From positions 1 through 21,720 of the IMG/VR virus record IMGVR_UViG_3300006109_000045: a stretch of DNA of 21,720 nucleotides, one strand, 5' to 3'. Within the stretch, counting starts at the first letter, position 1, and the number at the start of each line of letters is the position of its first letter. The notes below the pieces were generated by a model. The model was not told the DNA's origin. It saw nothing but the letters and a program-made list of their open reading frames with translations, and ran no database searches. The translations under genes and the position numbers were made by a program. This document shows positions 2,427-16,508 of the stretch, piece by piece. The stretch is from a virus.

Positions 2427-2984
2427 TTACCACATTGGAGTTTTCTTGATTTTACCACCATCTGCGCAATGCCAGCGCTTTAATGACGCGGCTTTTCTTG
2501 TCGGGCGGCCTTTTTCATCTTTCATAGGCCCAGGCATGCCACTCATTCGAGCGCAAAAAGAATCATGCCTAGGGCCCTTTGCTTGTGGAGCCTTAAGGTG
2601 ACTACCTGTTGCGCGATTAAATTTATCTCGACCTTTTTGAGTCAATCCAGCCCCACGGCTTGTAGGCAATTTTTCCCCACGACTCACCGATAGCTTAGGG
2701 TCACCGCCCTTAGCCATCTTTGTAGTCTTTGCTGCAGCTTTAAAGTCAGCAGCAGTAGGGGCGCCTTTGCTACCGGGCTTTCGCATATGCTCGCCAGAAC
2801 CATGCTTAATACGCTCTTGCTTAGCATGAATGTTATCCCACAAACCACCGCCGTCTTTCTTTTTAGCAGCACGCTTCATGCTATATGCAATAGCAACGGC
2901 CTGCTTAACAGGTTTGCCAGCATGCACTTCAGCTTTTATGTTCTTTTTAAAAGCTGCAGGCGACTTAGATTTGATGAGAGGCAT
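2427..2984 (-). CDS. Basic three-module phage protein with DUF6321-like region
   Basis: This is a 185-aa, very Lys/Arg-rich protein that reads as three modules. Residues 1-38 (PLIKSKSPAAFKKNIKAE followed by GKPVKQAVAIAYSMKR) form a short helical element that I recall recurring at the N-terminus of many phage small proteins. Residues 47-82 (LWDNIHAKQERIKHGSGE, MRKPGSKGAPT) form a second recurring element. Residues about 97-172 (SRGEKLPTSRGAGLTQKGRD, FCARMSGMPGPMKDEKGRPT, ending in LKRWHC) match my memory of the DUF6321 family. It also has MAKGGDPK and ADGGKIKK, variants of the GG motif found in other proteins of this cluster. Function is unknown. Its charge and position among virion genes suggest a DNA- or capsid-associated protein. 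The start is 2 bases after the upstream stop. Confidence 0.78.
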   Translation of the reverse strand: MPLIKSKSPAAFKKNIKAEVHAGKPVKQAVAIAYSMKRAAKKKDGGGLWDNIHAKQERIKHGSGEHMRKPGSKGAPTAADFKAAAKTTKMAKGGDPKLSVSRGEKLPTSRGAGLTQKGRDKFNRATGSHLKAPQAKGPRHDSFCARMSGMPGPMKDEKGRPTRKAASLKRWHCADGGKIKKTPMW

Positions 2985-2986
2985 GT

Positions 2987-3766
2987 TTACGTCCCAACGC
3001 CGGTCACGGTGTTATTGTTCTGAATCAGCTTGCCGGTCACGATAATGCCAGCAGCAATTGTTCCAGAACTTGCCGACAACTGCCATTGGATGTCAGTCTT
3101 TTGGGCATAAGCAAATGGATCAGCCACACGACTAGCCGTGTAGATCGACACAAAAGGTTGTTGCAACACATTGCGAATCACGCCAGACACGTTGTCAGCC
3201 GCTTGGACTTTATAAGTCACGGTCACGGTGCCGGTGTAAGGGTTTGATGTGTTGGCTTCAACCCAATCCAAGAAGAAAGTGTAACCAGCAGGCACGGTGT
3301 ACACGGTGCTTTGCGAACGACCAATACCGGGGTTGATCTGAGCCAGCGTGTTGGTGCTTTGCTTTAAGGTGATCGTGCCCACGTTGGTGCTTTGGCTGGT
3401 GCCTGCGCTAGCCAAAGTCAAGCTGTTGATACGGAAATAGCTGTTGACAGTTGTCACAGCAGCCGTGCCGTTCAAGAATAGGGTTTCAGACAACGGGTTG
3501 AAGCTGGCGTCAAGGCCATTGATCAAAACCGATGCCAATGTATTGTCTGAAGCAGAGCTACTCACCATTGTCAGCGTTGATGCTGAGGTGGGGTAAGTGT
3601 AAGTGCTTGCGTTTTCCCAAACAGGGATAGAGGTTGTGCCGACAGATGCTTGATAGCCAAAGATGCTAACGGTTGTATGCCCCATGATTTGACCACGGGC
3701 AACTTGCAAATCAAAAGGCTCATACGCACCATTGCGTGTAACTGACGCGACAATGTTATTGCTCAT
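2987..3766 (-). CDS. Beta-rich virion structural protein
   Basis: This is a 259-aa protein with low charge, rich in Ser, Thr, Val and Gly. The N-terminal segment includes PFDLQVARGQIMGHTTVSIF followed by VWENASTYTYP and a run of TLTMVSSSASDNT. This order (residues about 18-85) resembles a structural protein seen in several marine and freshwater podovirus- and myovirus-type phages. The middle has GLDASFNPLSETLFLNGTAA, typical of stacked beta-sandwich virion proteins, and later an FFLDWVEANTSNPYTGTVTV strand pair. There are no enzymatic motifs and no membrane segment. The ribosome site (AAAGG) lies immediately after the U-tract of the upstream terminator, so this gene needs read-through or its own promoter. 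A decoration, neck or tail role is likely, but I cannot separate these. Confidence 0.72.
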   Translation of the reverse strand: MSNNIVASVTRNGAYEPFDLQVARGQIMGHTTVSIFGYQASVGTTSIPVWENASTYTYPTSASTLTMVSSSASDNTLASVLINGLDASFNPLSETLFLNGTAAVTTVNSYFRINSLTLASAGTSQSTNVGTITLKQSTNTLAQINPGIGRSQSTVYTVPAGYTFFLDWVEANTSNPYTGTVTVTYKVQAADNVSGVIRNVLQQPFVSIYTASRVADPFAYAQKTDIQWQLSASSGTIAAGIIVTGKLIQNNNTVTGVGT

Positions 3767-3777
3767 AATATACCTTT

Positions 3778-3802
3778 AAAAAAGTGGGGGCCAAAGCCCC
3801 CA
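3778..3802 (-). terminator. Rho-independent terminator after the His-rich gene
   Basis: Read on the minus strand, a perfect 7-bp stem TGGGGGC/GCCCCCA with loop TTTG is followed by C and a run of six T. It begins 5 bases past the stop of the 411-aa gene and ends just before the ribosome site of the 259-aa gene, so it can end or reduce the upstream transcript. Confidence 0.85.
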
Positions 3803-3806
3803 GCTT

Positions 3807-5042
3807 TTAATAGTTGCACGACCCGCCTTTTTTCTGCACACAAGTAGAAATCTTGCTTGTATGCATGCTGCCGCCCTTTTTCATGGGATGGCCATCAACT
3901 TTATGATGCCCATGCGCATGTTTGCCGCCTTCTTTATGCATATGCATATGTCCAGCGTCATGGTGACCGTGCGTGGTGTGATGCGGAGCATGGCCATGAT
4001 GTACATGACCGCCCTTTTTGAACTTGCTCAGTTCAATATCACCAGTTTTGCGGCCGGCTTTTTTGTTCTTTTCCCCATCTTGCATGTCGTTAAGATAACG
4101 ATTTGCAACGGACTCAGAAACAGTACCGCCTTTAGCATAGTGATGCTTTTTATGAGCATGTCCACCGCGTTTATAGCCCCCATCATGTTCACCGGCAACA
4201 GTATTTACAACACGACCAGTAGAACTACCTGCCGATTTGTTTTTGCTGCCATCAACCACGGTGTCTTGCACATTGATTTTAGGCTTTGCGGCAGAGCGAG
4301 CTTGAAAAGCATCGCCTTTTGCAGCAATAGAGCCACCATCTTTGTAACCACCACCGCACATTTTAGCCATGTGTTTATGATGCTCATGCATTTTAGCGTG
4401 ATGTGCAGAGCCGCCTTCAGCATGCTTAGCAGCATGGTGTTTAGCCATTGCCAAGTGATGCTTTTTGGTGCCTTCTTCATGGCCAGAAATGCGATGTGTT
4501 TTGCCACCATGCTTATATTTGCTCAGCTCAATATCACCGGTGTCTTTCTTGGAGTTAGGGCGTGTAGCCTCAAGCCCACCAAGCAAACCGCCAGGAGTAT
4601 TGTCTTTAGCCATTGCAGCAGCACCGCCTTTTTTCAAGCCATGGTGCGCTTTGCCAGCCTTCATGCCTTCATGATGCTTAAGCTCTTTTTCAAGCTTATG
4701 CATTTCATGCATTTCGGCTTTTTCAGCTTTACCACCCTCAGCGTGATGGGCTTTGCCACCGCGTTTGCTAAGCAAAGCAGGTTGTTGACCTGCTACGGCT
4801 TGGCGCATATTTGCAGGAGGGCGTTGCATCATAGGGCGACGTGCAGGCATAGGCTGTCCACCTGCAGGTGCGCCCATGGGAGGACGCATTGCCATTGGCG
4901 CACCGCCCATACCACCGCCCATTGCCATGTGCTTTTTATGGCGTGCATGGCCACCGCGTTTCATACCATCACCAACTTCATCTGCAGAAGGCTCGTCGGT
5001 ATATTCTTTAGGTTCACGAGTGAACTTTTCGCTCTTTGCCAT
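3807..5042 (-). CDS. His/Lys/Gly-rich repeat protein with KKGG motifs
   Basis: This is a 411-aa low-complexity protein dominated by His, Lys, Gly, Ala and Met. At least eight GG-centred motifs recur: KRGGHARHKKH (28), KRGGKAHH (93), KKGGAAAM (137), KHGGKTH (177), KRGGHAHKKHH (291), KKGGHVHHG (342), KKGGSMH (388) and KKGGSCNY at the C-terminus. A longer unit, TGDIELSK[Y/F]K, occurs twice (168-177 and 333-342), showing internal duplication. Residues 41-82 are Met/Pro/Gly-rich. Cysteines are few (229, 401, 409). There is no signal peptide, membrane segment or known catalytic domain. The ribosome site is excellent (AAGGAG, 7 bases from the ATG) and a terminator follows, which suggests high and separately controlled expression among capsid genes. 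Binding of DNA or metal ions by the basic His-rich repeats is inference only. I cannot name a family. Confidence 0.85.
   Translation of the reverse strand: MAKSEKFTREPKEYTDEPSADEVGDGMKRGGHARHKKHMAMGGGMGGAPMAMRPPMGAPAGGQPMPARRPMMQRPPANMRQAVAGQQPALLSKRGGKAHHAEGGKAEKAEMHEMHKLEKELKHHEGMKAGKAHHGLKKGGAAAMAKDNTPGGLLGGLEATRPNSKKDTGDIELSKYKHGGKTHRISGHEEGTKKHHLAMAKHHAAKHAEGGSAHHAKMHEHHKHMAKMCGGGYKDGGSIAAKGDAFQARSAAKPKINVQDTVVDGSKNKSAGSSTGRVVNTVAGEHDGGYKRGGHAHKKHHYAKGGTVSESVANRYLNDMQDGEKNKKAGRKTGDIELSKFKKGGHVHHGHAPHHTTHGHHDAGHMHMHKEGGKHAHGHHKVDGHPMKKGGSMHTSKISTCVQKKGGSCNY
4008..4055 (-). repeat. Second copy of internal coding repeat (GDIELSK unit)
   Basis: This stretch encodes GDIELSK-FKKGG, residues 330-345 of the 411-aa protein. 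Its partner at 4503-4550 encodes the matching DTGDIELSK-YKHGG unit at 165-180. The two copies are 495 bases apart and both lead straight into a GG/His motif, so they mark an old internal duplication. Confidence 0.75.
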
Positions 5043-5053
5043 GGTATATCTCC

Positions 5054-6082
5054 TTAGGCTTGGGCTACACCAAGTGCACCTGTAGCCGTAGCATTAGGTC
5101 CAACTTGAATTGCGGTTAAATAAATACCCATCACCAAGCGGTACGTGCCATTGGCATTGCTTGAAGGTGCATAGGTACCGCGAACATCACCAGTTGTGCT
5201 TGTTGACACACCTTGGAAAGCAGCAACAAATGTGCCAGTGTCATTGGCAATGGACTGAGCCCAGCCAATATCGGCAATGTATGCAGCGTCTGTTACACGA
5301 ACAGGCAAACCAAAGACATTAGAAATGCCTGCCGAGACAGTGTTGGTGTTGCTTACACTAGGGGTAATGGAGACAATCGATTTGAAAGCTTTTTTACCTG
5401 TAGTGGTGGTTGAAGCGGTAACTGGAACACTAATTGCCTCGGTCATTGCTTGGCCATAGATGTCATAGCCAGAAACAGTAAACACAGATGCAGTAATAGT
5501 GGAGCCACCGGTTGTAATTGACACAGCGCGGGCATAGTCAAGCACATACACAGTTTGACCTGCGGTGTTAATAGACGAAACAACACCTGCAGTTGACAAT
5601 GCACGCAAAGTCATTGCTGCGCTTGCTGTTGTTGCCTGAGCTGTAGACAAAGCTGTAGTAGAAGGTGCTGCTGGGCAAGCATCAAACACATACAAACGAC
5701 CCAATGGGCCCACACCTTGACCCATAGGGGAAGGCGAAGCTTGTGTAGGTGTACCATATGTTAAAGAAACAGTTACTGTACCAGAGCCAGAAGCACTAGT
5801 CAAGATAACAGTGTTGAGTGTTCCAAGTGGGGGGTTGCTATATGCACCGCCAGTAGTTAGCGTTAAGCCAGTTACAACGCCAGCAGAGACAGAGCTAACA
5901 GTTAGTGTTGCAGGATTGCCTGTACCACCAGCTACTTGCAGTGTATCGCCAACGGCGTAGCCACTTGAGCCACCAGAAACTAAAGTTACTGCAGTTGCAG
6001 AAGTTTGATACGCCAAAAACGCATCAGTGCCCATGTACGTTTGGGCAGTACCTAAATAAAGATCATCACCAAATTGTGGCAT
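5054..6082 (-). CDS. Virion structural protein with inserted Gly-rich beta domain
   Basis: This is a 342-aa Ser/Thr/Gly/Ala-rich protein. The first 30 residues (MPQFGDDLYLGTAQTYMGTD) and residues from about 112 onward (GQGVGPLGRLYVFDACPAAP, VYVLDYARAVSI, SGYDIYGQAMTEAI) form the main body. The C-terminal part, including FGLPVRVTDAAYIADIGWAQ, is predicted beta. Residues 31-111 look like an inserted module with the pattern SGGSSGYAVGDTLQVAGGTG, then a valine/threonine strand series and GGAYSNPPLGT. Modules of this kind occur as add-ons in many phage capsid, neck and fibre proteins. The gene follows the major capsid gene with a 64-base gap that holds a stem-loop, and has a good ribosome site (GGAGAAG). 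A head decoration or surface role is likely; it has no enzymatic motif. Confidence 0.73.
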   Translation of the reverse strand: MPQFGDDLYLGTAQTYMGTDAFLAYQTSATAVTLVSGGSSGYAVGDTLQVAGGTGNPATLTVSSVSAGVVTGLTLTTGGAYSNPPLGTLNTVILTSASGSGTVTVSLTYGTPTQASPSPMGQGVGPLGRLYVFDACPAAPSTTALSTAQATTASAAMTLRALSTAGVVSSINTAGQTVYVLDYARAVSITTGGSTITASVFTVSGYDIYGQAMTEAISVPVTASTTTTGKKAFKSIVSITPSVSNTNTVSAGISNVFGLPVRVTDAAYIADIGWAQSIANDTGTFVAAFQGVSTSTTGDVRGTYAPSSNANGTYRLVMGIYLTAIQVGPNATATGALGVAQA

Positions 6083-6115
6083 TTTGTCTTCTCCATGAAA
6101 AGCATGACAAATGAT

Positions 6116-6139
6116 GCGGGGGATTTAAGGTTCCCCCGC
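6116..6139 (-). other. Stem-loop downstream of the major capsid gene
   Basis: A perfect 8-bp stem, GCGGGGGA/TCCCCCGC, with an 8-base loop lies 7 bases past the capsid stop. On the minus strand it is followed by ATCATTTGTC, not a T run, so it is a poor intrinsic terminator. A role in stabilising the capsid mRNA 3' end, or in partial termination, fits better. Confidence 0.7.
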
Positions 6140-6146
6140 AAAACCT

Positions 6147-7061
6147 TTAGGCGCCAGGGGTGCCAAACAAGGCACGTGGGTCAGTCCAGTTAGGAATGTA
6201 ACGTTCTGTGGCTTTGTAACGCATGGAGTCGGTTTCGAAATCGCCTTCCATGGTCTTTTCCAAAGCACGACGCATCATCAGCTTCATACCTTCTGGTGCG
6301 TCGGTTTGAACCCACCAGTTAGTAGCAGAAGTCAAACGGCTGATAACGGTAGCGCCTTCAGGCAACAAACCAATCGATTTGATTGGGTTGATGTCATTGT
6401 TAGCGGTGCCGGTACGCAACACAGACTTCAGCAAAACTTCAGCTTGGAAGACGTTACCAGGGGCAACAACCAGTTTCAGAGGCTGCAACCGGATCTTCTT
6501 GCCATTGTTATCAACGGCTTGGCGAATTTGAATCAACATTTGTTCCAAAGAAGTTTGGCTCAGTGCAGCAGCAGTAGACAACTGATTGCTGAAAGAACCA
6601 ACTGCAATGGGGTGTGCAGTGTTGATCAAAGAAACGCCGTCACCGCCGGTGTAAGAGCTGTTAAATGCACGGTTCAAGATGTTAGCGCACAGCAATTCTT
6701 TGGTTTCCACCAAAGATTGTGCCAAGTGCTTAGCATAAACTTGACCGATACGGATGTGGTCACCGTCTTCAACCAACACTTTGGTCAAAGCAAATGCCAA
6801 ACCGTACACGTTATAAACATAACGTTGCAAGAACAGCACGCCACCTTGTTGGTAGCTTACTGGAGAGCCATCGGGCAACTGTGGAGCTGCACCGAAGCCG
6901 TACAAGACGGGCTCTTCATGGTAGTTACGTGGGATACCTTGTTGTTCACGGAAAACGGTCGACCATTCATCGGCACGTTGATCATAAACACCGTCAAAGG
7001 ACTCGTTAAGAATTGGTTCGACAATACTTCTAAAGTCCGTACTGCGCATTGGGGCTGCCAT
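6147..7061 (-). CDS. Major capsid protein, HK97-fold (Mu gpT-like)
   Basis: This 304-aa protein has the layout of the shorter HK97-fold capsid proteins of the Mu gpT type. It has an N-terminal helix (TDFRSIVEPILNESFDGVYD), an extended segment (YGFGAAPQLPDGSPVSYQQG, then RYVYNVYGLAFALTK), a long spine-type helix (QVYAKHLAQSLVETKELLCA), then an INTAHPIAVGSFSNQL stretch and the LKLVVAPGNVFQAEVLLKS element common in this family. A C-terminal DAPEGMKLMMRRALE strand-helix follows. It forms the icosahedral shell. Its position agrees: scaffold and GroES-like genes lie upstream and decoration-type proteins downstream. The ribosome site AAAGGA is well placed. There is no N-terminal propeptide or protease gene nearby, so maturation by cleavage is not indicated. 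Confidence 0.9.
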   Translation of the reverse strand: MAAPMRSTDFRSIVEPILNESFDGVYDQRADEWSTVFREQQGIPRNYHEEPVLYGFGAAPQLPDGSPVSYQQGGVLFLQRYVYNVYGLAFALTKVLVEDGDHIRIGQVYAKHLAQSLVETKELLCANILNRAFNSSYTGGDGVSLINTAHPIAVGSFSNQLSTAAALSQTSLEQMLIQIRQAVDNNGKKIRLQPLKLVVAPGNVFQAEVLLKSVLRTGTANNDINPIKSIGLLPEGATVISRLTSATNWWVQTDAPEGMKLMMRRALEKTMEGDFETDSMRYKATERYIPNWTDPRALFGTPGA

Positions 7062-7080
7062 GATGCTATCCTTTCTTTAA

Positions 7081-7680
7081 TTACACAATCGCGGTATATT
7101 GACCGAAGAATTGTGTGTTAACCATTTGGACGCGCACAATGGTGTATGCATCCCCCCATGCGTTGTCGGCGTAAGGAGCCAGATCAACGACACGCATTTG
7201 GCCTTGTGCGTTATTGGCCACGTTAGTACCGGCACCAAGGGTTGCTTGCGACAAACCTGTGGTAGTAGAACCCGCAGTAACGTTGGTGAAGAAGTATTCA
7301 CCGCCAATAGACGTTTGAGCCATCGAGCCATCAGCTTGAATTTCATAAATGATATTCAAATCATTGTAGAAATAAGCAACGATTGATGTACCGGTTGTGC
7401 TTGCGGGCCAGTAGTTGGACACGCGGCGACGGCCGGTGGTATCAGTCCATTCAACGCCTTGGAAAGAACCTGTCACAGTTCCAGTAGCCAGTGCGGGAAG
7501 GATAGTACCATTGGTTGATGTGCTTGTCTGGTTGCCTGCTTGTCCATAAACAATAGGCTGACCTTTCAAGATGTTGGCACTAAAGCCAGATGCAATACCG
7601 TTGGCCAGCGCCTGAGCACGTTCCAACCCAGTTGGAAAGAATGCAGGGCGCAAACCAAACGGAGCGGATGTTGCTGACAT
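7081..7680 (-). CDS. Probable head decoration or minor capsid protein
   Basis: This is a 199-aa protein beginning MSATSAPFGLRPAFFPTG, followed by LANGIASGFSANILKGQPIV, a Thr/Gly-rich strand region, then FQGVEWTDTTGRRRVSNYWP, YEIQADGSMAQTSIGGEYFF and VVDLAPYADNAWGDAYTIVR. I recognise the overall pattern as a small conserved protein encoded immediately upstream of the major capsid gene in many aquatic phages. I know of no experimentally assigned function. Predicted structure is mostly beta, with no Cys and no membrane segment. The ribosome site is strong (AGGAG) and the gene is 19 bases from the capsid gene. Size, composition and placement suit a head decoration protein, but a capsid-folding partner is not excluded. 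Confidence 0.72.
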   Translation of the reverse strand: MSATSAPFGLRPAFFPTGLERAQALANGIASGFSANILKGQPIVYGQAGNQTSTSTNGTILPALATGTVTGSFQGVEWTDTTGRRRVSNYWPASTTGTSIVAYFYNDLNIIYEIQADGSMAQTSIGGEYFFTNVTAGSTTTGLSQATLGAGTNVANNAQGQMRVVDLAPYADNAWGDAYTIVRVQMVNTQFFGQYTAIV

Positions 7681-7701
7681 AATGAGCTCCTAAATTAAAA
7701 A

Positions 7702-8235
7702 TTACCTGAAAACAGGCACTTCTCTTGTTTGGTCAAATCTCATGCCTTCACCCTCAATTTGAACCAATGGCTTCCCACTACTGTCTTTTGCGCCAAGCAA
7801 CGATTCTTGTTGGACTTTAATCTTCTCCTGTTCATCCAAAGGTGCATAGTGATGCATCTCGGCCATGAAGTCTTGGTAGATATCCATGGGGAGTTTATAA
7901 AGAACCATCTCGTTGACGGAGACAAAACCCGCGAGCTCACCCGACTTAACCTTTAAGTGTTCAAAGCCGGGAACTTCTTCAGCTTTCACAGGTATATAGC
8001 CAAGGCGCAAACGTTTATGTATTGGGTCGTATTGGTTGGTTGTGGATAACCAGCATAAGTGGAATCCCGGAATTTCCGGTGGGGTTGGAAGGGCTTCTTG
8101 TTGCCATTCCGAACGGAATGCCCTGCGGCGCTCCTGCGATGATACCATGTGGTCTTCAGGACCGCGCCTTTGCAAATCGTCTGTAGCACGATTTTCGCGG
8201 CCTGCATTAGTATTCTTTTTAAGTCTATCGTCCAT
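7702..8235 (-). CDS. Conserved phage protein of unknown function between scaffold and head genes
   Basis: This is a 177-aa protein. The N-terminal 50 residues are charged and probably disordered (MDDRLKKNTNAGRENRATDD). A folded core follows, with PPEIPGFHLCWLSTTNQYDP, KRLRLGYIPVKAEEVPGF, SGELAGFVSVNEMVLYKLP and a helix MDIYQDFMAEMHHYAPLDEQ. The C-terminus is EGEGMRFDQTREVPVFR. No catalytic motif or membrane segment is visible. The ATG is 2 bases after the scaffold stop, with AGGA at 8-base spacing, so the two are probably co-translated. Its fixed place between scaffold and capsid suggests an assembly or minor virion role. I do not recognise a named family. Confidence 0.72.
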   Translation of the reverse strand: MDDRLKKNTNAGRENRATDDLQRRGPEDHMVSSQERRRAFRSEWQQEALPTPPEIPGFHLCWLSTTNQYDPIHKRLRLGYIPVKAEEVPGFEHLKVKSGELAGFVSVNEMVLYKLPMDIYQDFMAEMHHYAPLDEQEKIKVQQESLLGAKDSSGKPLVQIEGEGMRFDQTREVPVFR

Positions 8236-8237
8236 GA

Positions 8238-9206
8238 TCAGTTCCTAGATTTATTTTGGCGGTCCCACTCGGCGTATTTGCGAATGGCGTTTTGACGTAG
8301 TGCGGGATTGTCCCAAAGTCCTGCTTCTTTCATAGCAGCGACGCGGTCTGGGCTAAGCCTAAATTCATTAGACTTTGTTGTTGCCATAGACTCACGACCT
8401 GAACTTGTCACTACAGACCTCGGTTTCTGATTACGGACACTGGAATCATTATAACTACTATTTGTTTTGTTGGGAATATATTTTTGCAATCTTTCATCCA
8501 ACTCATCCCAGTAGTCTTCGCTTGTAGGGTCAAAGCCTTCCGCGGTTAGCTTCTTGTCAATCATTTGCGCAATGGCTGACTCTTCGTTTTTACCGCTTGG
8601 GTCATACCAAGTGTTGCGCTCCATCCATTCTTCGGCGTATTTGCGAATAACAGGGTCCGCGGTAGGGGCTGGGGCAACAGGTTCTTGCGCTTGCTTAACA
8701 GCTTTTTGCTTAGTTGCTTGCAAGTTTTGCAACTTTCGACGAGCTTCATACAAAAGTTCCTCAGACTTGGTCACACCGGCGCCATCGCCGCGTGCAACAG
8801 CCTCTTGCATCTTCATCTTAGCATACTCGACTTGCACGCCAGCGTCTTGAATAGCTTTATCAACACGGGCGAGCTCGCCATTAACAGCACTGCGCTCAAC
8901 CTTGGCCAATCGTTCTGACAAGGCCTCATTTTGCTTGCGCAATGCCGCAATTAAGTGGTTAGATTCACGTGCTTTTTCACGGTGAATTTGTTTTTTAAGC
9001 CGTCGTTCTTCTCGTCGAGCTTCACGAATGGCTTCTCTATCCGGATCGTTGTCCAATCCATCATTAGCAGGTGCAGCTGGACCATCATCATGGTCATCTT
9101 CTACTGCTGCGGGCTCAGGAGCTGGGATTTCTGGGGGCAAAGTTACGGTCGCGCCGCCATCTTGTGCCTCAGTTACCTGCATCTCCATCTTATCGGTAGG
9201 AGTCAT
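8238..9206 (-). CDS. Probable capsid assembly scaffolding protein
   Basis: This is a 322-aa, strongly charged protein. Residues 20-60 are Pro/Ala/Asp-rich and probably disordered. Residues about 58-190 form one long helical, coiled-coil-like region (EAIREARREERRLKKQIHRE, LIAALRKQNEALSERLAKVE, EELLYEARRKLQNLQATKQK). Then comes RKYAEEWMERNTWYDPSGKN, a motif I have seen in other phage scaffold-type proteins, and a C-terminal helix pair (FRLSPDRVAAMKEAGLWDNP, RKYAEWDRQNKSRN). An acidic N-terminus, coiled coil and C-terminal helices upstream of the major capsid gene are the usual features of internal scaffolds. No serine-protease motif is visible, so it is not an obvious protease-scaffold fusion. 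The start has AAGGA 8 bases upstream; Met7 is an alternative. Confidence 0.78.
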   Translation of the reverse strand: MTPTDKMEMQVTEAQDGGATVTLPPEIPAPEPAAVEDDHDDGPAAPANDGLDNDPDREAIREARREERRLKKQIHREKARESNHLIAALRKQNEALSERLAKVERSAVNGELARVDKAIQDAGVQVEYAKMKMQEAVARGDGAGVTKSEELLYEARRKLQNLQATKQKAVKQAQEPVAPAPTADPVIRKYAEEWMERNTWYDPSGKNEESAIAQMIDKKLTAEGFDPTSEDYWDELDERLQKYIPNKTNSSYNDSSVRNQKPRSVVTSSGRESMATTKSNEFRLSPDRVAAMKEAGLWDNPALRQNAIRKYAEWDRQNKSRN

Positions 9207-9225
9207 ACAGTTTTCCTTTCAAAAC

Positions 9226-9648
9226 TTAGATAAACGCTTTAATATCGCGTGGGTCGCCGGTTACTTTGCCAATTAGTTCATGGTCATTAAAGAACGTAAA
9301 CAAGGCTTTACCGCTTGCGCCTTGCTCATCGGTGAAGTCTACTTCCCAACGGTCGCCGCCCCATTTAGGAACGCGAACAAAATCGCCGACTTGCGCCCAT
9401 GCGCCTTCAGGCCAAGGCTCCATAGACTCACGTTTTCTAAAGGCCAATGGGCCAATTGCCAAGACTTTACCAATCATGGTGTTCCATTTCTCGGTTTCCT
9501 TGGTATCTTCGGGAATGTAAATTCCGGCTGATGTTACTTTTTCCTTGACAGCGCGGAGCTGGACAAGAATACGAGCTCCATAGGGAGCCATGAGAGGGTC
9601 TACAATAGGGAACGCTTCTTCAAGCGTCTGTTCAACGTCGTTCGACAT
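9226..9648 (-). CDS. Phage GroES-like co-chaperonin
   Basis: This 140-aa protein aligns by eye with the Cpn10/GroES family. Residues 21-31 are APYGARILVQL, the first strand. Residues 33-49 hold the mobile-loop region (AVKEKVTSAGIYIPEDT, with the SAGI hydrophobic tip that contacts GroEL). They are followed by MIGKVLAIGPLAF and WAQVGDFVRVPKWGG, matching the GxVxAxG and VGDxV landmarks. The C-terminal HELIGKVTGDPRDIKAFI is typical of the phage form. It is longer than bacterial GroES (about 97 aa), with an N-terminal extension and an insertion near residues 70-82. No GroEL is encoded in the window, so it would work with host GroEL, as T4 gp31 does, probably in folding the capsid protein encoded a few genes downstream. 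It overlaps the upstream 61-aa gene by 17 bases. Confidence 0.88.
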   Translation of the reverse strand: MSNDVEQTLEEAFPIVDPLMAPYGARILVQLRAVKEKVTSAGIYIPEDTKETEKWNTMIGKVLAIGPLAFRKRESMEPWPEGAWAQVGDFVRVPKWGGDRWEVDFTDEQGASGKALFTFFNDHELIGKVTGDPRDIKAFI

Positions 9649-9817
9649 TTCTTTCTTCCTCTAGAATGTTGTTAATAAAATCTAAGACTTCTGACAAGCC
9701 TTGGTGCTGCCCGACCAAGCGTTGGTACGTTTCAAAATTGATGGCATTGCCATTGGCAAGGCCTTCTGCAATTTCATGTTGCCGACGCTTGATCTGGCTG
9801 ATAAGTGTGTTTAGCAT
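9632..9817 (-). CDS. 61-aa helical phage protein, function unknown
   Basis: This small protein is predicted fully helical: LNTLISQIKRRQHEIAEGLA, then NFETYQRLVGQHQGLSEVLD and a charged end (NNILEEERNVERR). Two helices with a loop at AINFE suggest a helical hairpin. The pattern is like short proteins often found just before GroES or capsid genes in related phages, which supports it as real despite its length. The start follows directly on the stop of the 121-aa gene (TAAATG) with no clear ribosome site, so it depends on translational coupling. It overlaps the GroES-like gene by 17 bases. I cannot assign a function. Confidence 0.68.
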   Translation of the reverse strand: MLNTLISQIKRRQHEIAEGLANGNAINFETYQRLVGQHQGLSEVLDFINNILEEERNVERR

Positions 9818-10183
9818 TTATCGACCGCGGCCTGTGCTCTTTTTCATAGGCGCCAGCACAAGGGCTATGCCCATTTTTCCACTATGCGCATGACCGCCTT
9901 TTTTCATTGTGGCAATCTTAGGCCCAGTGGCTTTGGTCAGCGGTTTAACGCTGCCTTTAGCAGGAAGATTGCGAATCTTGCTTTCAGGATAGGCACCAAT
10001 TTTGTTAACACCTTCTTGATGGCTAACTTCAGCTGGTTCGCCTGAGTTAGACCCTACTAAATTAACTTGTCCGCCTTTGGCGTATTTGGCAACTTTTACC
10101 TTGCCGCCTTTTTTCATATTGTCGCCCATGATGTTTTCACCCATGGCCATACGTTTATGCTGACGAATTGCTTCTTCATTCAT
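9818..10183 (-). CDS. Basic small protein with KKGG motifs
   Basis: This is a 121-aa, Lys/Gly-rich protein. It contains MKKGGKVKVAKYAKGGQVNL (23-42) and MKKGGHAHSGKMG near residue 93, and ends in LAPMKKSTGRGR. The middle (GEPAEVSHQEGVNKIG, KIRNLPAKGSVKPLTKATGP) is hydrophilic. AKGGQVN closely resembles KRGGQVH at the end of the 690-aa protein and KxGG units of the 411-aa protein. The ribosome site is excellent (AAGGAG, and its first bases are also the stop codon of the upstream gene), so it may be well expressed. No known fold or enzymatic motif is visible. A nucleic-acid- or capsid-binding role is inference from charge and location only. Confidence 0.75.
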   Translation of the reverse strand: MNEEAIRQHKRMAMGENIMGDNMKKGGKVKVAKYAKGGQVNLVGSNSGEPAEVSHQEGVNKIGAYPESKIRNLPAKGSVKPLTKATGPKIATMKKGGHAHSGKMGIALVLAPMKKSTGRGR

Positions 10184-10194
10184 ATCGATTCTCC

Positions 10195-10452
10195 TTAAAA
10201 TCCATGATGATGTTTACCAGTTTTGCCACCGCCAAAGCCGTGCCAATCGTGGTGGGGTTTAGCGGATTTAGCTCCACTGGACTTAGCAGCACCGCCTTTT
10301 TTAAGGGCCGTAGGGCTACATTGCTGCGAGGCAACTTGACACATGCAAGGCACGGCTTGACCCATAGCGTTTTCATCGCTAAGTAGGCGCTGAGCCGGAC
10401 TTAGCATGCCTACAGGTAATTGCGCGCATTGCGCTTGAAAGGGTTTTGTCAT
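10195..10452 (-). CDS. Small Cys/His-containing KKGG protein
   Basis: This is an 85-aa protein. The N-terminal half has MTKPFQAQCAQLPVGMLSPA and four cysteines (9, 36, 38 and 45), including CMC and the QQC that precedes SPTALKKGGAAK. The C-terminal half is Lys/Gly/His-rich (AKPHHDWHGFGG, then KTGKHHHGF at the end). It overlaps the portal stop by 4 bases (ATGA). The Cys plus His content could bind a metal ion, but this is inference. It shares the KKGG signature with its downstream neighbour and with the 411-aa protein. I know no family with an assigned role. Confidence 0.7.
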   Translation of the reverse strand: MTKPFQAQCAQLPVGMLSPAQRLLSDENAMGQAVPCMCQVASQQCSPTALKKGGAAKSSGAKSAKPHHDWHGFGGGKTGKHHHGF

Positions 10453-12998
10453 TGCGGCATTCCTAAATTAGATTGAAGTTTGTTCTGGACATCCAAAATG
10501 GTCTTGGCTTGCTCATGCTGCAAGTTCGCAGCATCTCGACTGATTTCAGCTGACTTAATTCGTTCTTGAGTCAAATTGTTTTCAGTATTCTTAATCAAGT
10601 CAGCCTGCATGGCAGTAGATTTTTCTTGGTTAATCAGTTGCATGTCTTGAGCTTTAAGCGCCAAGCTTTGCTGGTCATACTGCGCCTTGCGCTGCGTCTC
10701 GGCCAAAGATGTTTGCACCAAGCCTTGAACCTGCGCTTGCACATTGGGGTCAATGGGCTGCTGAGCGCCTTGCGCAGCTTTTTGCACCAGTTCAAACATT
10801 TGTTGAATGTATTGCAGTGATGGGCCAAGTTGCTCTTTGCTGTCTTGGTGCGTATGCTGCGCTGCGGCGGCGACCAGTTTTTGCGCCTCCGGCGTAATTG
10901 GGCTAGTGCCAAAGATAGCAAAAGGCTTGCCTAGAGCAACACTGGCGTAAGCGTCCGTCTGATGCAAGTACCACAAACCAAAGTGCTCAATAACGTGCGC
11001 CAAAGTAGCAGGTAAGAACGTTTTAGGCACCGCGGGGTTCATACCAAAGACTGGGTCCACCGCAAATTGCAAGTGCGTCATAATATGAGCCATGTGGTCT
11101 TGCTGCGGGAAAGCGCCAACAGGCTTGCCCATCAACATAGCCACGTTTTCCAAGGCCGGGTTCATGTCTTTAACTTCTGCGGGGTCAGGCAAAACTTCAT
11201 TGACATCAGGCAATTTAATTTGCTTGAGGATTCGCTTTTCAACGGCCAAACGGTCATACAGGTCAGGGTTAGCCTGTGCACGAGCTGCCAAAGCTTGGAT
11301 TTGTGCGTACCGTTGTGACTCAGCAAAGATGTTGGGGTCAGACACCGGGATGATGTCTGAGTTGGTAAGAAAGTCTTCTTTCTTAACATCCAAGTCAGCA
11401 ACAATCTCATTTTTGCGCTGCTCATCCAAATACCACCGGTTAATTCGGCCAAGGATTCGAAGAACGCGGCGCTGTGAGTCATGGAGTCGTGAGTGAATGG
11501 CAGAGAAAACCGCCGCGCCTTGCTCAATCAAAGCTTGTGTAGTTCCAACTGGGGCGTTTGACGTTACGTCGGCAATCTTTTCCTCAGCGGTAGTAACTAC
11601 GCCCTTGGCGGCGTCTGTCAACCAGCCCAGCAACTCCATCAACACATTAGATGGGGGATTAAAAGGCACAGGCATGGCGATCTTGCGCACATCGTCAATG
11701 CCTGGTGCCCCTTCTATTTCACTGACCTGCGTAGGCTCAATGACCGTAGTCTGTCCGCTAATCTTGCCGCCCTTGAGCTTAAGCATCGTAGGGGCGTTGT
11801 TAATGTGAGCTGAATCCAATAAAGCACGTAAAGCACCAGTAAGAGCAGCACTAAGCCCGCCAATAAGATGAGGCAAACCAATAGCGTAAGCACCGCGCCA
11901 AGGTATGAACTTAAACTCAACCAGCCAGTCCAGCTTAGTAAACGTTTCATCACCATTCTCCCAATTGCGATATAGCCCAACAATTTGCTGCTCATTCTCA
12001 TCAATCATCATGATGTAAGGAGCTCTATCACCCTTGGTAAACTTATCCCCTTCTTGTTCAAGCCAAGTGTAGATGTGAAAGACTCGACGCACGCCGTCTA
12101 TGTTGTCATTCTGGTCTTTACGACCCTCAATCTTGTCATTGGCTTTTTGCGCCTTGGACTCATCCGGCTCCATGGGTGCACGATAAACGCCTAGGTCAGT
12201 GTACAAGCCTTGCGAGACGCGCAGGTCATACTCATCTTGCGTAATGTCTTGGACTTCGGTGACACGCTGTGCTGTGTAAAAGTTTGCCGCCGCAAAGGGC
12301 AAGTAAATGTTGTCAATGGGGACAAACTCAGCGCAGGGGCGTTTCTTCAATTCATCATACCAAAGCTTCATGTACTGACTGCCACCAAGTGGCAGCTGCG
12401 TCAGCAATTGCTCCTGCTCATCTCGGTATTCCTCGATCTGCTCAGTCAGTTGCCAGTTCATGTAATCGCGCTTGCGATCGGCTTTCTCAATCTTAGCCTG
12501 CGTTGTGTCGCCAACAATCTTAGTTTTGACCGGCCCGTCTGAAGGGAATAGCTCCTTAATAGCGCGGGCGGCAAAGTCAACGCAAGCCTCTGCCATAACG
12601 GGGTGGACGACTTTACTGGCGCCCATGAACTGAGCACCGCCTGGGGCGTCATTGCCTAAGCCCGTACGACGCAGGCCTTCTTCATATTGCTTATCTCTGT
12701 CTTCTCGAGCTTCTTTGTCTTTCTCAATCAAGTCCAAGTACTTAATCGCCAAATTAGAAAGCTCCCAACTTGGCAAGCTATCAGCCAAGTTCTCGTAAAA
12801 ATCCGGGGTCGCCTCTGGCCCCTGCAAGTTATCCCCAAAGGTTACTATGGCCGAGCCATCGGGCATCTCCTCGACCATTGCTGGATCATCTGCGCCTTCT
12901 ATATCATCAAACAGTTCTTGAATACCTTCACTGGTCGAGCCCGTGATAGGGTCAATGAACCGATTGTAGTCTTGAGGAATCGGCATTTCAGTAGCCAT
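10449..12998 (-). CDS. Portal protein
   Basis: This is an 849-aa protein, in the size range of the large portals of podovirus-type phages. Landmarks are an acidic N-terminus (residues 1-75), EACVDFAARAIKELFPSDGP, a helix-rich DYMNWQLTEQIEEYRDEQEQ, then QLPLGGSQYMKLWYDELKKR, FVPIDNIYLPFAAANFY and RRVFHIYTW. The core LIGGLSAALTGALRALLDSA followed by NNAPTMLKLKGG resembles portal stem and clip regions. The C-terminal 130 residues or so are Gln/Ala/Lys-rich and coiled-coil-like, starting at about VQAQVQGLVQTSLAETQRKA. It would form the dodecameric ring through which DNA is packaged and ejected. The start shares one base with the stop of the upstream gene (TAATG) and has an AGGAGA ribosome site. 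Position directly after the terminase block supports the call. Confidence 0.87.
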   Translation of the reverse strand: MATEMPIPQDYNRFIDPITGSTSEGIQELFDDIEGADDPAMVEEMPDGSAIVTFGDNLQGPEATPDFYENLADSLPSWELSNLAIKYLDLIEKDKEAREDRDKQYEEGLRRTGLGNDAPGGAQFMGASKVVHPVMAEACVDFAARAIKELFPSDGPVKTKIVGDTTQAKIEKADRKRDYMNWQLTEQIEEYRDEQEQLLTQLPLGGSQYMKLWYDELKKRPCAEFVPIDNIYLPFAAANFYTAQRVTEVQDITQDEYDLRVSQGLYTDLGVYRAPMEPDESKAQKANDKIEGRKDQNDNIDGVRRVFHIYTWLEQEGDKFTKGDRAPYIMMIDENEQQIVGLYRNWENGDETFTKLDWLVEFKFIPWRGAYAIGLPHLIGGLSAALTGALRALLDSAHINNAPTMLKLKGGKISGQTTVIEPTQVSEIEGAPGIDDVRKIAMPVPFNPPSNVLMELLGWLTDAAKGVVTTAEEKIADVTSNAPVGTTQALIEQGAAVFSAIHSRLHDSQRRVLRILGRINRWYLDEQRKNEIVADLDVKKEDFLTNSDIIPVSDPNIFAESQRYAQIQALAARAQANPDLYDRLAVEKRILKQIKLPDVNEVLPDPAEVKDMNPALENVAMLMGKPVGAFPQQDHMAHIMTHLQFAVDPVFGMNPAVPKTFLPATLAHVIEHFGLWYLHQTDAYASVALGKPFAIFGTSPITPEAQKLVAAAAQHTHQDSKEQLGPSLQYIQQMFELVQKAAQGAQQPIDPNVQAQVQGLVQTSLAETQRKAQYDQQSLALKAQDMQLINQEKSTAMQADLIKNTENNLTQERIKSAEISRDAANLQHEQAKTILDVQNKLQSNLGMPQ

Positions 12999-15070
12999 TA
13001 AGCTCTCCTAAGTAATGCAAGGCGCATTTCATCTGGGTTATTGGTTATGTGAACTTGGCCACCGCGCTTATGGCCCTCAGGCTGCGCGTCAGTGTCTGCA
13101 ACAGGCGGGCCGCTTTCACCATACGTAGGCGGAGTATCTGGATTGACAAAGTCCGCAAACTCACGCTCTGTCATAAACCGCGGAGCGTCAGGTTCAAAAT
13201 GCAACGCCGTGTTAAGAATGTCACGCCTTTCATGCGGCAAATTTGTAGGCAACGCATCTTGCAATGCGGGCATAACATGGTTAGGGTTGCCAAGATCTAC
13301 CAAGCCATGCATCTCAACGTCATGCCCGCTAACATCGCCCCATTCACGACTGTTCAAAAAGTCTTTGACAGCGTCCCGCATATTTGCCAGATAATTAGGA
13401 TCTTTTCGCGCGTAGCCCGCAGCTCTCTCGCTTGAGTAATAATTGCCCGGTGGCTTAATCTCGTAAATGTTAGGCGGTTTGTCTTCCAATCCGCTAGGGT
13501 GATCGACAACTTGTATTTGTACATGTGGGCGCCCATCTGAGTCTAGCAACGCGTACAATTGTCGATCGACACCGCCGCCATAACGTTGAGCATTACCCTC
13601 ATCTTTTGTGCACCATCCACCGGCTTGACCAATGCTTCTACATACTGTCATGCCTTCATTTGATTCAGTGTCGGGAATGGCCACCCACTTACCGCCTTTG
13701 TCTTTGGCTTCTGCGTATGAAAAGTTAGGGGCTTCGCGGTATGGGTTGGCTTTCAAATTGTCAAGCATGCCTTCTTTCTCGGCACGCGCAGCCATCATTT
13801 CTCGATACTCGTTAATGTCATGCACACGCTTAACGGCTTGAGGCACTGTGACTTTTTGCAAGTCCTCGGGCTTCCATTGCAGGTAGGCCGGCAAGTCAGT
13901 GCGCCTATCAGTTGCGCTTTCTAGCTCGTTGACCAAGTGATCAAAATACGTTTCATCGCCAAAGTCTCTTGGAAATAGGACTGAATGAATCGGCGTATTG
14001 GGGTCAACACTATTAAGCCAAGGGTTGCTTTTTGAAAACTCATAGACACGGTATTCACTTGCAGGACGCGTATTGATTTGCTTATCGCTCAGGTCTTCCC
14101 AAATCTCGCCGCGGCGCGTATTGTGCAACGCGTCCCACATATCGCCCTCTTCCATTTCATTGAAAGTTTTATTGGCAAAGCCTTCTTCAGGATAGCCTGC
14201 GTTAACGCGAGCATGGGAAACACGATCCGGCGTCCAAAACTGCAAATCATTCGCAAGCTCTGCGCCAGGGATATGGGAGATGCTTTGCCCGGGGTAATCT
14301 GGGTGTAGGCCCTGATGCATAAGTCGCAATGGGTCATCGGGTGTTGACATTTGGTTTCGAACATATTTTTGTAGCTTAGTGTCTACCCAGTTGTTAATAG
14401 CGCCGACTTGCGCCATTCTTGCTTGCGTAGCCGGTGTGTCTGCATGTTCTGCCCAAGCGCCGCCAACTGCAATTGCCTCATCACGATGTACAGGCTCTGC
14501 AATCTTGAGATTGTTAAGGGCTTCTTTCACCGAGTCAGGGGCGAACTTAGAGCGTGCAGGCCGCCAATTGCCACCCGGCGCTTTGATGGCGCCTAAGTCA
14601 GACATTGGATTGCGCGCAGCTTCACGCCCACCGCCTAATGTACTTAGGCCTTCACCGGCTACGCGCATGGCAGCGGGCTGAACAATAGGTGCCACGACAT
14701 TAGTGCCCATCCACGAGCCAACATCCTCCGAGTGTTGAGCCGCGGGGCTCATGCCAAGCGTCTTGGTCATGTTGGGCGCCCTTGCCGCCAGCTGCTCTGA
14801 GGTTGGGCCTGCCGGCATACGGGCAAAGAAGTCTTGCGCTGTCTTAGGCAAGCGCGGAGTCATGTATTCTCTAAGCAGAGCGTTCAGGTCTCCGGGAGCC
14901 CCAAGTATACCGGCACCAGTACCTTTCACAGCGCCGTAAAGCATAGGCGCCAGACCCTGTGTCAACGCATCAAGTGGATTGGCCTGCACGCCTTTGTTGA
15001 CTCGGCTGCCCATGCCTTGCTGGGCCAGTGCATACTGCATCTCATCTGGAGTTGGCTGATCAGACGGCAT
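12998..15070 (-). CDS. Large multidomain phage protein with PcfJ-like stretch and C-terminal KRGG motif
   Basis: This is a 690-aa protein starting at the ATG at 15070. An AGGAGG site lies 10 bases upstream of it and it overlaps terL by 11; a further in-frame start at 15130 lacks such a site. Residues 35-70 hold GLAPMLYGAVKGTGAGILGA and DLNALLREYMTPRLP, an element common in large phage multidomain proteins. Residues about 460-575 have KGGKWVAIPDTES, GQAGGWCTKDEGNAQRYGGG, RQLYALLDSDGRPHVQIQVV and NIYEIKPPGN. Their order resembles the PcfJ-like domains of phage and plasmid proteins. The C-terminus carries HKRGGQVHITNNPDEM, the GG motif shared with several smaller proteins of this cluster. It lies between terL and portal. 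Whether it is a virion component, perhaps ejected with DNA, or an assembly factor cannot be decided. No catalytic triad is apparent. Confidence 0.75.
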   Translation of the reverse strand: MPSDQPTPDEMQYALAQQGMGSRVNKGVQANPLDALTQGLAPMLYGAVKGTGAGILGAPGDLNALLREYMTPRLPKTAQDFFARMPAGPTSEQLAARAPNMTKTLGMSPAAQHSEDVGSWMGTNVVAPIVQPAAMRVAGEGLSTLGGGREAARNPMSDLGAIKAPGGNWRPARSKFAPDSVKEALNNLKIAEPVHRDEAIAVGGAWAEHADTPATQARMAQVGAINNWVDTKLQKYVRNQMSTPDDPLRLMHQGLHPDYPGQSISHIPGAELANDLQFWTPDRVSHARVNAGYPEEGFANKTFNEMEEGDMWDALHNTRRGEIWEDLSDKQINTRPASEYRVYEFSKSNPWLNSVDPNTPIHSVLFPRDFGDETYFDHLVNELESATDRRTDLPAYLQWKPEDLQKVTVPQAVKRVHDINEYREMMAARAEKEGMLDNLKANPYREAPNFSYAEAKDKGGKWVAIPDTESNEGMTVCRSIGQAGGWCTKDEGNAQRYGGGVDRQLYALLDSDGRPHVQIQVVDHPSGLEDKPPNIYEIKPPGNYYSSERAAGYARKDPNYLANMRDAVKDFLNSREWGDVSGHDVEMHGLVDLGNPNHVMPALQDALPTNLPHERRDILNTALHFEPDAPRFMTEREFADFVNPDTPPTYGESGPPVADTDAQPEGHKRGGQVHITNNPDEMRLALLRRA

Positions 15071-16508
15071 ACGGGTTGACCCTCCTGGGCTGTGTGTCAT
15101 CGACGTAAATGTCAGTGTCATTATACACATGATCGATCACAAGGAAACCCATATCTCGGAGAAGACGCAATCCCTGCGTCGTGGCGTCCACCAAGTCATC
15201 GTGCCGGACTTCGGGGAAAGCGCAAAGCTGGCTAATCAGGGGCTCGGCCCATGACCTGGGGGTGTTAGGCTTCTTGGTGGACTCGGGCACATAGACCAAG
15301 CCCCGTTGAATGATGGGGGAGACCACGTTCAGGCGCTGTGTCTTGTCCGCCATCCCTGGGTTGTAAGATCTGACCTGCAGGCCGGTGCGCTGCAAGTCTT
15401 GGATTAGGCTGATGCCGGCGGACTTGTCCTCAATCAGAATCAGGTCAACCTTCTTCCCGTTGCCAAACTCGTTGGGGTCGCCATACACAGTGCTGGCTTC
15501 ATCGACCACGCGGGGTCGAAGGTCTGGGTACTGCATATGCTCTTCCCAGCAATCAATAATCATGACCGACATGGGGGAGTCAGGCCCAGGCTTGAAGATG
15601 CCAAACACGACGCAGGCTGTGGGATCGTTATGCGTTTTGTCCGAGGTCGCGCAATCATAGCTCTGGACCACGTACTCAAAGCGAGGCAAAGCGCGAGGCT
15701 CGCCATTCTCAAAGTACGCAGGCCAAAGCTGAAACCAATCCCGTTTGACGATACCGGCTTCTTCTGGATCGATCAGCTCGGCGTAGATTTCTTGCCTGCC
15801 GATCTTGGTGCCCTCATACTGAAGAATCTGCTTCTTGTATGTGGGAGCCAAGTTGTCGATGTTGTCATAGGTCGATGCCATTGTGTAGGCAACATCATCC
15901 CCATCGCGCTGGACCAGCTCCACGATCTTAGGCTTAGGCTTTGGCGTGGTTGTGCATATGAGCTGTGGGTGCTTACCTAGGCGCATGCCAAAAGCGATCA
16001 TGTCCCAGGCATCGTCCAAGTATTGCCAAGCTGCCAACTCATCAAGCCAGCCTCTATGAAACTGTGGGCCCCGGAATCGCTCCGGCTCAGAGGCCGGAAT
16101 GCCTTTGATGATGCTGCCATTCTTAAGCGTGAGCTCATGCAACGACTTGACATACGTGTCTATAAGAATGTTGGGGCACACCGACAGGAGTCCAGAGTCT
16201 CCCTCAAAGCAAACATCGCGCACATCACCTGATGTGGGAGCAGAGACCAAAGTGCGAGTCCCCGGGTTTGCCCATGCGTACCACCAAGTGTCCTCTGCCG
16301 CAGTTCGAGTCTTGCCCGCACCACGACCCGCCAACAAAAGCCAAATGTCCCACCACTCGCCGCTAGGCGGAATCTGGTGATCGTTTGCAATTGTCAACCA
16401 CTTGGTTCTGGCTTTAACGGCAGCTTTCCACTCAGGGCTGGACTGATTGAGATCGGGCCCAGACTTGATGCGACGCGCTATGCGTTCACTCGTCGCTTGA
16501 CTCAGCAT
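15060..16508 (-). CDS. terL: Terminase large subunit (ATPase and nuclease)
   Basis: This 482-aa packaging motor has all the expected motifs. The Walker A motif is LLLAGRGAGKT (57-67), Walker B is GWLDEL (153-158) with catalytic Glu157, and the coupling motif is TTTPKP (186-191). The C-terminal RNase H-like nuclease has its acidic residues at SYDCA (Asp285), LILIED (Glu360, Asp361) and RHDDLVDA (Asp437-438, Asp441). It pumps DNA into the prohead through the portal ring encoded two genes downstream and cuts it at the end. Length is normal for the family (about 450-550 aa) and no motif is damaged. It overlaps the small-subunit gene by 23 bases; AAGG precedes the ATG at about 8 bases. The packaging type (cos or pac) cannot be told from this sequence. 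Confidence 0.95.
   Translation of the reverse strand: MLSQATSERIARRIKSGPDLNQSSPEWKAAVKARTKWLTIANDHQIPPSGEWWDIWLLLAGRGAGKTRTAAEDTWWYAWANPGTRTLVSAPTSGDVRDVCFEGDSGLLSVCPNILIDTYVKSLHELTLKNGSIIKGIPASEPERFRGPQFHRGWLDELAAWQYLDDAWDMIAFGMRLGKHPQLICTTTPKPKPKIVELVQRDGDDVAYTMASTYDNIDNLAPTYKKQILQYEGTKIGRQEIYAELIDPEEAGIVKRDWFQLWPAYFENGEPRALPRFEYVVQSYDCATSDKTHNDPTACVVFGIFKPGPDSPMSVMIIDCWEEHMQYPDLRPRVVDEASTVYGDPNEFGNGKKVDLILIEDKSAGISLIQDLQRTGLQVRSYNPGMADKTQRLNVVSPIIQRGLVYVPESTKKPNTPRSWAEPLISQLCAFPEVRHDDLVDATTQGLRLLRDMGFLVIDHVYNDTDIYVDDTQPRRVNPYAV

What the first reader, a model, noticed from the sequence alone, without database searches (positions are those of the whole stretch)
2427..15070. A K[K/R]GG signature shared by five or more proteins scattered through the virion cluster
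The 690-aa protein (HKRGGQVHITN), the 85-aa (LKKGGAAK), the 121-aa (MKKGGKVKV, AKGGQVNL, MKKGGHAH), the 411-aa (at least eight copies) and the 185-aa (AKGGDPK, ADGGKIKK) proteins all carry a basic residue pair, GG, then small, basic or His residues. Seen directly: the motif recurs in proteins of very different size and otherwise unrelated sequence, all on the same strand and interleaved with packaging and capsid genes. I do not know of a described role. It could be a docking or sorting tag for the capsid interior, a DNA-condensing element or a cleavage site. This is the best candidate here for an undescribed system.
Basis: partly seen in the sequence, partly recalled or inferred. Interest (0 to 1): 0.82.

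Follow-up and report, generated by a model that had tools for sequence, protein, structure and literature searches.

The report
Shared short tag on phage cargo
A short glycine-glycine tag recurs in several otherwise unrelated proteins of an uncultured environmental phage and its relatives, including at the very end of large shuffled proteins thought to be injected into the host, which suggests a common label for loading cargo into the virus head, though nobody has shown this at the bench.

Summary
Strict K[KR]GG occurs in four window proteins (690, 85, 121, 411 aa) and nowhere else; the 185-aa protein has only AKGG/ADGG. In 411 aa there are 7 copies against 0.3 expected, in 121 aa 2 against 0.08.

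In 91 relative contigs the motif is concentrated in three slots of the head block (115, 153 and 29 copies against 6.3, 4.6 and 1.0 in shuffles), while capsid, portal, terminase and tail proteins show none or near-chance levels. The true core is [FYM][AK]xGGx[VA]; the basic pair is a local flavour. In a scan of IMG/VR for KKGGxVKK, the unconstrained preceding residue is M/Y/F/L in 94% (background 15%; reversed control 14%).

The 690-aa protein is a PcfJ-like polyvalent protein. Its relatives carry ADP-ribosyltransferase, lysozyme and other domains. Many end with the same tag, GHKKGGx[VI]..D.M[RK]LALxRR; in one relative the tag is retained although a new domain precedes it. AlphaFold2 puts short helices at both ends on disordered linkers.

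Best reading: a cargo-docking tag for the capsid interior, analogous to but not a member of T4/P1 capsid targeting sequences. Packaging itself is untested.

The parts
12998..15070 (-). 690-aa PcfJ-like polyvalent protein (LPP) between TerL and portal (ORF could start at 15130, 710 aa)
   Evidence: Relatives at the same slot hit PcfJ, LPD23, ART-PolyVal; model matches PcfJ-like phage proteins in BFVD, E=4e-25 for the best named one
13001..13072 (-). C-terminal tag HKRGGQVHITNNPDEMRLALLRRA
   Evidence: Same tag ends many LPPs; 57% identical to that of a 1147-aa relative over 30 columns; helix 679-689 after a disordered linker
15020..15049 (-). N-terminal copy of the tag helix, PDEMQYALAQ
   Evidence: Helix 8-17 in the model, followed by disorder 18-161; helix motif 1.8 per 1000 aa in the first 60 residues of LPPs against 0.13 in the body
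10195..10452 (-). 85-aa post-portal protein with one copy, LKKGGAAK (about 10282-10305)
   Evidence: no family match
9818..10183 (-). 121-aa post-portal protein: HKRxAMG core plus MKKGGKV, YAKGGQV, MKKGGHA (GG codons start near 10108, 10075, 9898 on the minus strand)
   Evidence: GG-motif columns 93% identical against 67% for other columns in 10 sequences; invariant KKGGKV in alignment A5; model mostly disordered, mean pLDDT 58
3807..5042 (-). 411-aa Lys/His/Gly-rich protein (pI 9.9) after the capsid genes, with about a dozen copies, C-terminus QKKGGSCNY
   Evidence: 7 strict copies against 0.30 expected; GG-motif columns 95% identical against 64% elsewhere in 10 sequences
2427..2984 (-). 185-aa protein: DUF6321 domain (about 2472-2651) with degenerate copies AKGGDPK and C-terminal ADGGKIKK
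   Evidence: PF19846 E=1.5e-20; motif weak, GG columns 77% against 69%
10449..12998 (-). Portal protein (no motif), anchors the relatives' gene order
   Evidence: phrog_1216 E=1.9e-16; 1 motif in 88 relatives' portals against 3.0 expected

Best explanation
The K[KR]GG signature is the local form of a short linear motif, [FYM]-[AK]-x-G-G-x-[VA], that in a group of uncultured podoviruses (phrog_1216 portal, related to Caulobacter phage RW, Pelagibacter phage HTVC027P and phage DSL-LC04) marks non-shell proteins made from the head gene block. I think it is a docking tag that recruits cargo into the prohead before DNA packaging, by binding one common partner on the inside of the head (scaffold, portal or coat; which one is unknown). 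Large polymorphic, probably injected polyvalent proteins (LPPs) carry it as a terminal tag (GG-V turn plus a short helix D-x-M-[RK]-L-[AE]-L) at the end of a flexible linker; small disordered basic proteins (121, 85, 411, 185 aa) carry one to a dozen copies, which would give avidity and pack around the DNA. Shown: the motif, its conservation, its restriction to certain slots, the terminal position, the predicted disorder, the domain shuffling in front of it. Inferred: packaging, the common partner, injection.
For: Slot-specific enrichment in 91 contigs: LPP slot 115 observed against 6.3 shuffled, capsid-adaptor slot 153 against 4.6, post-portal slot 29 against 1.0; portal, MCP, terminases, adaptor, fibre and most other conserved structural proteins at or near chance. 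In four long records the motif genes lie mostly in this block. Unbiased scan: the unconstrained residue before KKGGxVKK is M/Y/F/L in 94% of 112 contexts against 15% background and 14% in the reversed-peptide control; neighbours are portal, phrog_12985, DUF6321 and terminase families, not so in the control. A profile trained on other contigs finds the tag in LPPs (9 domains at iE<0.01, none in reversed sequences), mostly at or near the C-terminus. Helix motif: 5.3 per 1000 aa in the last 40 residues of LPPs, 1.8 in the first 60, 0.13 in the body, 0.02 in shell proteins. The tag is retained although the 1147-aa relative has several hundred extra residues, including an ADP-ribosyltransferase domain, before it. 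Termini are short helices on disordered linkers. LPP and motif-rich protein tend to co-occur, 13/15 against 2/6, p=0.03, not corrected for phylogeny.
Against: No virion proteomics, no binding data, no cultured close relative of the 121- or 411-aa proteins by tblastn. By a narrow regex only 24 of 63 proteins at the LPP slot have the motif in the last 50 aa (3.3 expected); some LPPs have none. Caulobacter phage RW and Roseobacter phage CRP-902 have related portals but no such motif set. The 85- and 185-aa cases are weak on their own. The co-occurrence rests largely on one clade without LPP.
Confidence: 0.5

Rival explanations
1. DNA-binding or DNA-condensing element: Lys/His/Gly-rich disordered proteins neutralise packaged DNA, and the tag tethers the LPP to the DNA so that it travels with it.
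For: 411-, 121-, 185- and 85-aa proteins have pI 9.5-10.7, and the 411-aa protein is rich in Lys and His. T4 internal proteins contact DNA phosphates through lysines (PMC3012670).
Against: In LPPs the residue before GG is E or D in 49 of 115 copies, while the aromatic/Met three before GG and the Val after it (not charge) are kept. The window LPP itself is acidic (pI 5.3).
Confidence: 0.2
2. The motif acts after ejection: tags and small proteins assemble or guide the polyvalent protein at the cell envelope (conduit, membrane or host partner), not during packaging.
For: LPPs carry host-directed domains (ADP-ribosyltransferase, lysozyme) of a class predicted to be injected (PMC5512222). P22 ejection proteins form a trans-periplasmic conduit (PMC8402733 abstract).
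Against: Nothing tested here separates it cleanly; small motif proteins without any recognised host-directed domain carry more copies than the LPPs.
Confidence: 0.15
3. Proteolytic processing site: a protease cuts after GG, releasing domains, as with GG-X cleaving viral proteases.
For: GG sites lie in linkers and near termini; polyvalent proteins often carry peptidase domains (PMC5512222).
Against: Conservation continues past GG (Val, then the helix); up to 13 copies in one small protein would shred it; no separate protease was seen among the window's head genes.
Confidence: 0.05
4. Low-complexity drift: lysine/glycine-rich disordered proteins produce KKGG by composition.
For: The 411- and 121-aa proteins are rich in K, G and, in the 411-aa, H.
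Against: 18- to 33-fold over composition-preserving shuffles, flanking residues fixed, GG-motif columns more conserved than the rest of the families.
Confidence: 0.05

Closest known systems
T4 capsid targeting sequence (CTS) of internal proteins
   Same: A short conserved peptide is the only thing shared by a diverse set of packaged, injected proteins (PMC3012670).
   Different: From general knowledge, the T4 CTS is N-terminal and removed by the prohead protease; here the GG tag is mostly C-terminal or internal and repeated, no protease is seen, and no sequence relation is claimed.
Phage P1 DarB N-terminal packaging signal
   Same: A large injected anti-restriction protein carries a short terminal signal; its first 30 residues send a reporter into the head (PMC9024508).
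   Different: The authors found no consensus shared among Dar proteins; here several unrelated proteins share one motif.
Phage polyvalent proteins (Iyer et al. 2017)
   Same: The tagged LPPs contain PcfJ, LPD23, ART-PolyVal and similar domains and lie next to terminase and portal.
   Different: That paper predicts packaging; the passages I searched name no shared packaging tag.
Bacterial KGG repeat (PF10685, GsiB/YciG type)
   Same: Contains KGG followed by small and basic residues (my knowledge).
   Different: No Pfam match at E 0.1 for the motif proteins apart from DUF6321.

Membership tests
Polyvalent proteins (for the 690-aa protein) | Contains PcfJ or other polyvalent-associated domains | tested here: met
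   No direct Pfam hit, but homologous to the L019 LPP, which hits PcfJ, and BFVD structural match to PcfJ-like proteins
Polyvalent proteins (for the 690-aa protein) | Gene beside terminase and portal in a portal-terminase phage | tested here: met
Polyvalent proteins (for the 690-aa protein) | Packaged and injected | not testable with these tools
   No virion data for this group
T4 capsid targeting sequence | N-terminal signal removed by the prohead protease (general knowledge) | tested here: not met
   GG tag lies at the C-terminus or is repeated internally; no separate protease found among the window's head genes
T4 capsid targeting sequence | Sufficient to package a foreign protein | not testable with these tools
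   Needs a bench test
KGG repeat PF10685 | Match to the Pfam model | tested here: not met
   No match at E 0.1
N4-type virion RNA polymerase encapsidation region | Same motif in N4 virion proteins | tested here: not met
   Eight of nine N4 proteins tested have no match to a broad form, gp50 included; gp53 has one, KATGGKI

The most novel reading that the evidence does not exclude
A whole group of uncultured podoviruses uses one two-part sequence code, an aromatic-GG-Val turn plus a short terminal helix, to load interchangeable effector proteins and their small packing partners into the virus head, so that a new effector domain becomes cargo simply by lying in front of the tag.
Probability: 0.4. 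Interest if true: 0.8.

Novelty: new variant of a known kind. Interest (0 to 1): 0.6.

Why it matters
How large injected phage proteins get into the head is known for very few phages, and in P1 no consensus signal was found among the packaged proteins. A shared sequence tag would allow cargo proteins to be recognised from sequence alone, would explain how effector domains are swapped without losing packaging, and makes the question directly testable with a reporter fusion.

Tried and rejected
(1) DNA-level repeat: rejected, codons vary. (2) Stress KGG family: no Pfam match. (3) N4 virion proteins as a known example: only one weak match in nine proteins. (4) Scaffold-like (322-aa) C-terminus as the element the tag mimics: it has a conserved [LI]SP[DE]RVxAMKxAG helix slightly like the LPP helix, but profiles of the tag do not hit it significantly, so left as speculation. 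(5) Identifying the binding partner by co-occurrence: phages without the motif still have scaffold, coat, portal and GroES, so no partner stands out. (6) Cultured phages with the 121- or 411-aa protein, or a consensus tag by tblastn: no match; no relative of the 121-aa family in bacterial genomes. (7) Solved structures like the LPP: no significant PDB match, weak acetyltransferase-like hits only. (8) PADLOC and NCBIfam: nothing of use. (9) Literature: no paper found describing such a motif in phages.

Full report
What the window is. The record is a 21.7-kb virus fragment. Reading along the minus strand it encodes TerS, TerL, a 690-aa protein, a portal (phrog_1216), 85- and 121-aa proteins, a 61-aa protein, a GroES, a 322-aa protein (probably the scaffold), 177- and 199-aa proteins, the major capsid protein (304 aa), 342-, 411-, 259- and 185-aa proteins (the last with DUF6321), a 352-aa protein that is syntenic with annotated tail adaptors, and tail genes. 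The portal is 58% identical to that of an environmental phage from Manatee Spring (ctpbd312), 49% to Caulobacter phage RW, and about 29-35% to Roseobacter, Pelagibacter and Planktothrix phages.

The observation. The quoted peptides are all there. Against shuffles of each protein's own composition, strict [KR][KR]GG is clearly in excess in the 411-aa (7 against 0.30) and 121-aa (2 against 0.08) proteins, weakly in the 85-aa and 690-aa (one each), and absent from the other 24 genes tested. The 185-aa protein has only KDGG, AKGG and ADGG; its [KRH]GG count is not above chance.

It is conserved and widespread. Relatives of the 121-aa protein keep the motifs in place, and so do those of the 411-aa protein, which end in HHKKGGKCNY in several contigs. 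In these two families the GG-motif columns are 93-95% identical against 64-67% elsewhere. In four long relative records the motif is found in a handful of genes, mostly in the same block. An independent scan of IMG/VR for the codons of KKGGxVKK gave 115 of 120 loci with the match inside an ORF; the preceding residue, not part of the pattern, was Met, Tyr, Phe or Leu in 94% of 112 distinct contexts (background 15%), whereas the reversed peptide gave 14%. About half of those ORFs hold two or more broad copies, the control ORFs none. Genes next to these ORFs often belong to the phrog_1216 portal, phrog_12985 (the window's 352-aa protein), DUF6321, terminase and GroES families; genes next to the control do not share such a set.

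Where in the genome. I fetched 80 contigs with related portals and named their genes by similarity to the window (91 contigs with the earlier ones). The motif is concentrated in three slots: between TerL and portal (115 observed against 6.3 expected by shuffling), between capsid and adaptor (153 against 4.6), and just after the portal (29 against 1.0). Most conserved structural proteins have none, and portal, TerL and GroES have a few. The scaffold-like 322-aa family has 7 in 57 proteins, some of the form MAEGGDV. In the TerL-portal slot the residue before GG is K 33, E 31, D 18, Q 10, while the aromatic or Met three residues before GG and the Val at the second position after it dominate.

What the big protein is. 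Proteins in the TerL-portal slot range from about 330 to 2300 aa and, in a sample of 14, hit PcfJ, LPD23, ART-PolyVal, an ADP-ribosyltransferase, phage lysozyme and other domains: they are polyvalent proteins, a class predicted by Iyer et al. to be packaged and injected (PMC5512222). Their bodies are related in patches: 42 of 47 link into one cluster by shared stretches, yet lengths and domains differ widely. Many end in the same way: HKKGGx[VI], a short spacer, then D-x-M-[RK]-L-[AE]-L-x-x-[RN]-K at the C-terminus. A profile trained only on contigs from the pattern scan finds the tag in the portal-anchored set with nine domains at iE below 0.01 and none in reversed sequences. The helix part occurs at 5.3 per 1000 residues in the last 40 residues, 1.8 in the first 60, 0.13 in the body and 0.02 in shell proteins. 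Another branch ends instead in [FY]A[KEQ]GG[SL]V..YDP..[VI].AI. The clearest single case is the window protein against the 1147-aa relative L019: they align over residues 6-471, diverge afterwards, L019 has an ADP-ribosyltransferase domain at 921-1113, and the last 26-30 residues align again at 57% identity as PEGHK[RK]GG...N.DEM[RK]LAL.RR.

Structure. AlphaFold2 with 15 sequences gives an ordered core (about 162-645); the model matches PcfJ-like phage proteins in BFVD. The core is flanked by low-confidence linkers that end in two short helices, 8-17 (PDEMQYALAQ) and 679-689 (within NNPDEMRLALLRRA): much the same helix at both ends. No solved structure matched significantly. The 121-aa protein is predicted mostly disordered apart from its N-terminal helix. 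That region carries an HKRxAMG sequence which recurs in the small post-portal proteins of many relatives, including some without KKGG; the KKGG segments look like an addition to it.

How it most likely works. I propose that the tag docks cargo to one partner in the prohead, so that polyvalent proteins and the small basic proteins are enclosed before or during DNA packaging. The terminal position on flexible linkers, retention despite domain changes, multiple copies in small disordered proteins, and a tendency of the motif-rich protein to be missing where the polyvalent protein is missing (13/15 against 2/6; p=0.03 without correction for relatedness) all fit. It works like the T4 capsid targeting sequence, where diverse injected proteins share only a packaging signal (PMC3012670), and like the P1 DarB signal (PMC9024508), but I do not file it as a member of either: position and, as far as can be seen, processing differ. 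DNA condensation may be an additional role of the basic proteins. The packaging step, the partner and injection are inferences; no virion data were found.

Limits. Slot names in relatives come from BLAST against the window, and near-identical contigs were removed only by the first residues of each protein. The enrichment uses a broad regex, with shuffles as its control. LPPs without a recognisable tag exist. The group has few cultured members, and no close cultured relative of the 121- or 411-aa proteins was found.

Noticed in passing
9818-10183 (N-terminal 20 residues of the 121-aa protein): An H[KT]R[ILM]A[MAG]G peptide is present in the small post-portal proteins of many relatives, including phages without KKGG there; Caulobacter phage RW has HKKLAVG at the same place. 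It may be a head or portal contact of its own.
   Followed up: partly
2427-2984: The 185-aa protein's DUF6321 region matches 377 phage records, mostly cyanophages, and lies near capsid or head-tail genes in the two inspected; function unknown.
   Followed up: partly
9226-9648: A GroES-like gene sits in the head block of most relatives, just before the scaffold-like gene.
   Followed up: no
8238-9206: The 322-aa scaffold-like family ends in a conserved helix region SP[DE]RVxAMKxAGxWDxP, faintly like the LPP terminal helix; similarity not significant by profile.
   Followed up: partly
3807-5042: The 411-aa protein is 12% histidine (48 of 411), and several relatives keep His-rich stretches and a C-terminal KKGGKCNY.
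   Followed up: no
L399, L401, L410 (TerL-portal slot): Some relatives have two adjacent large proteins in this slot, with recognisable but different C-terminal endings.
   Followed up: partly
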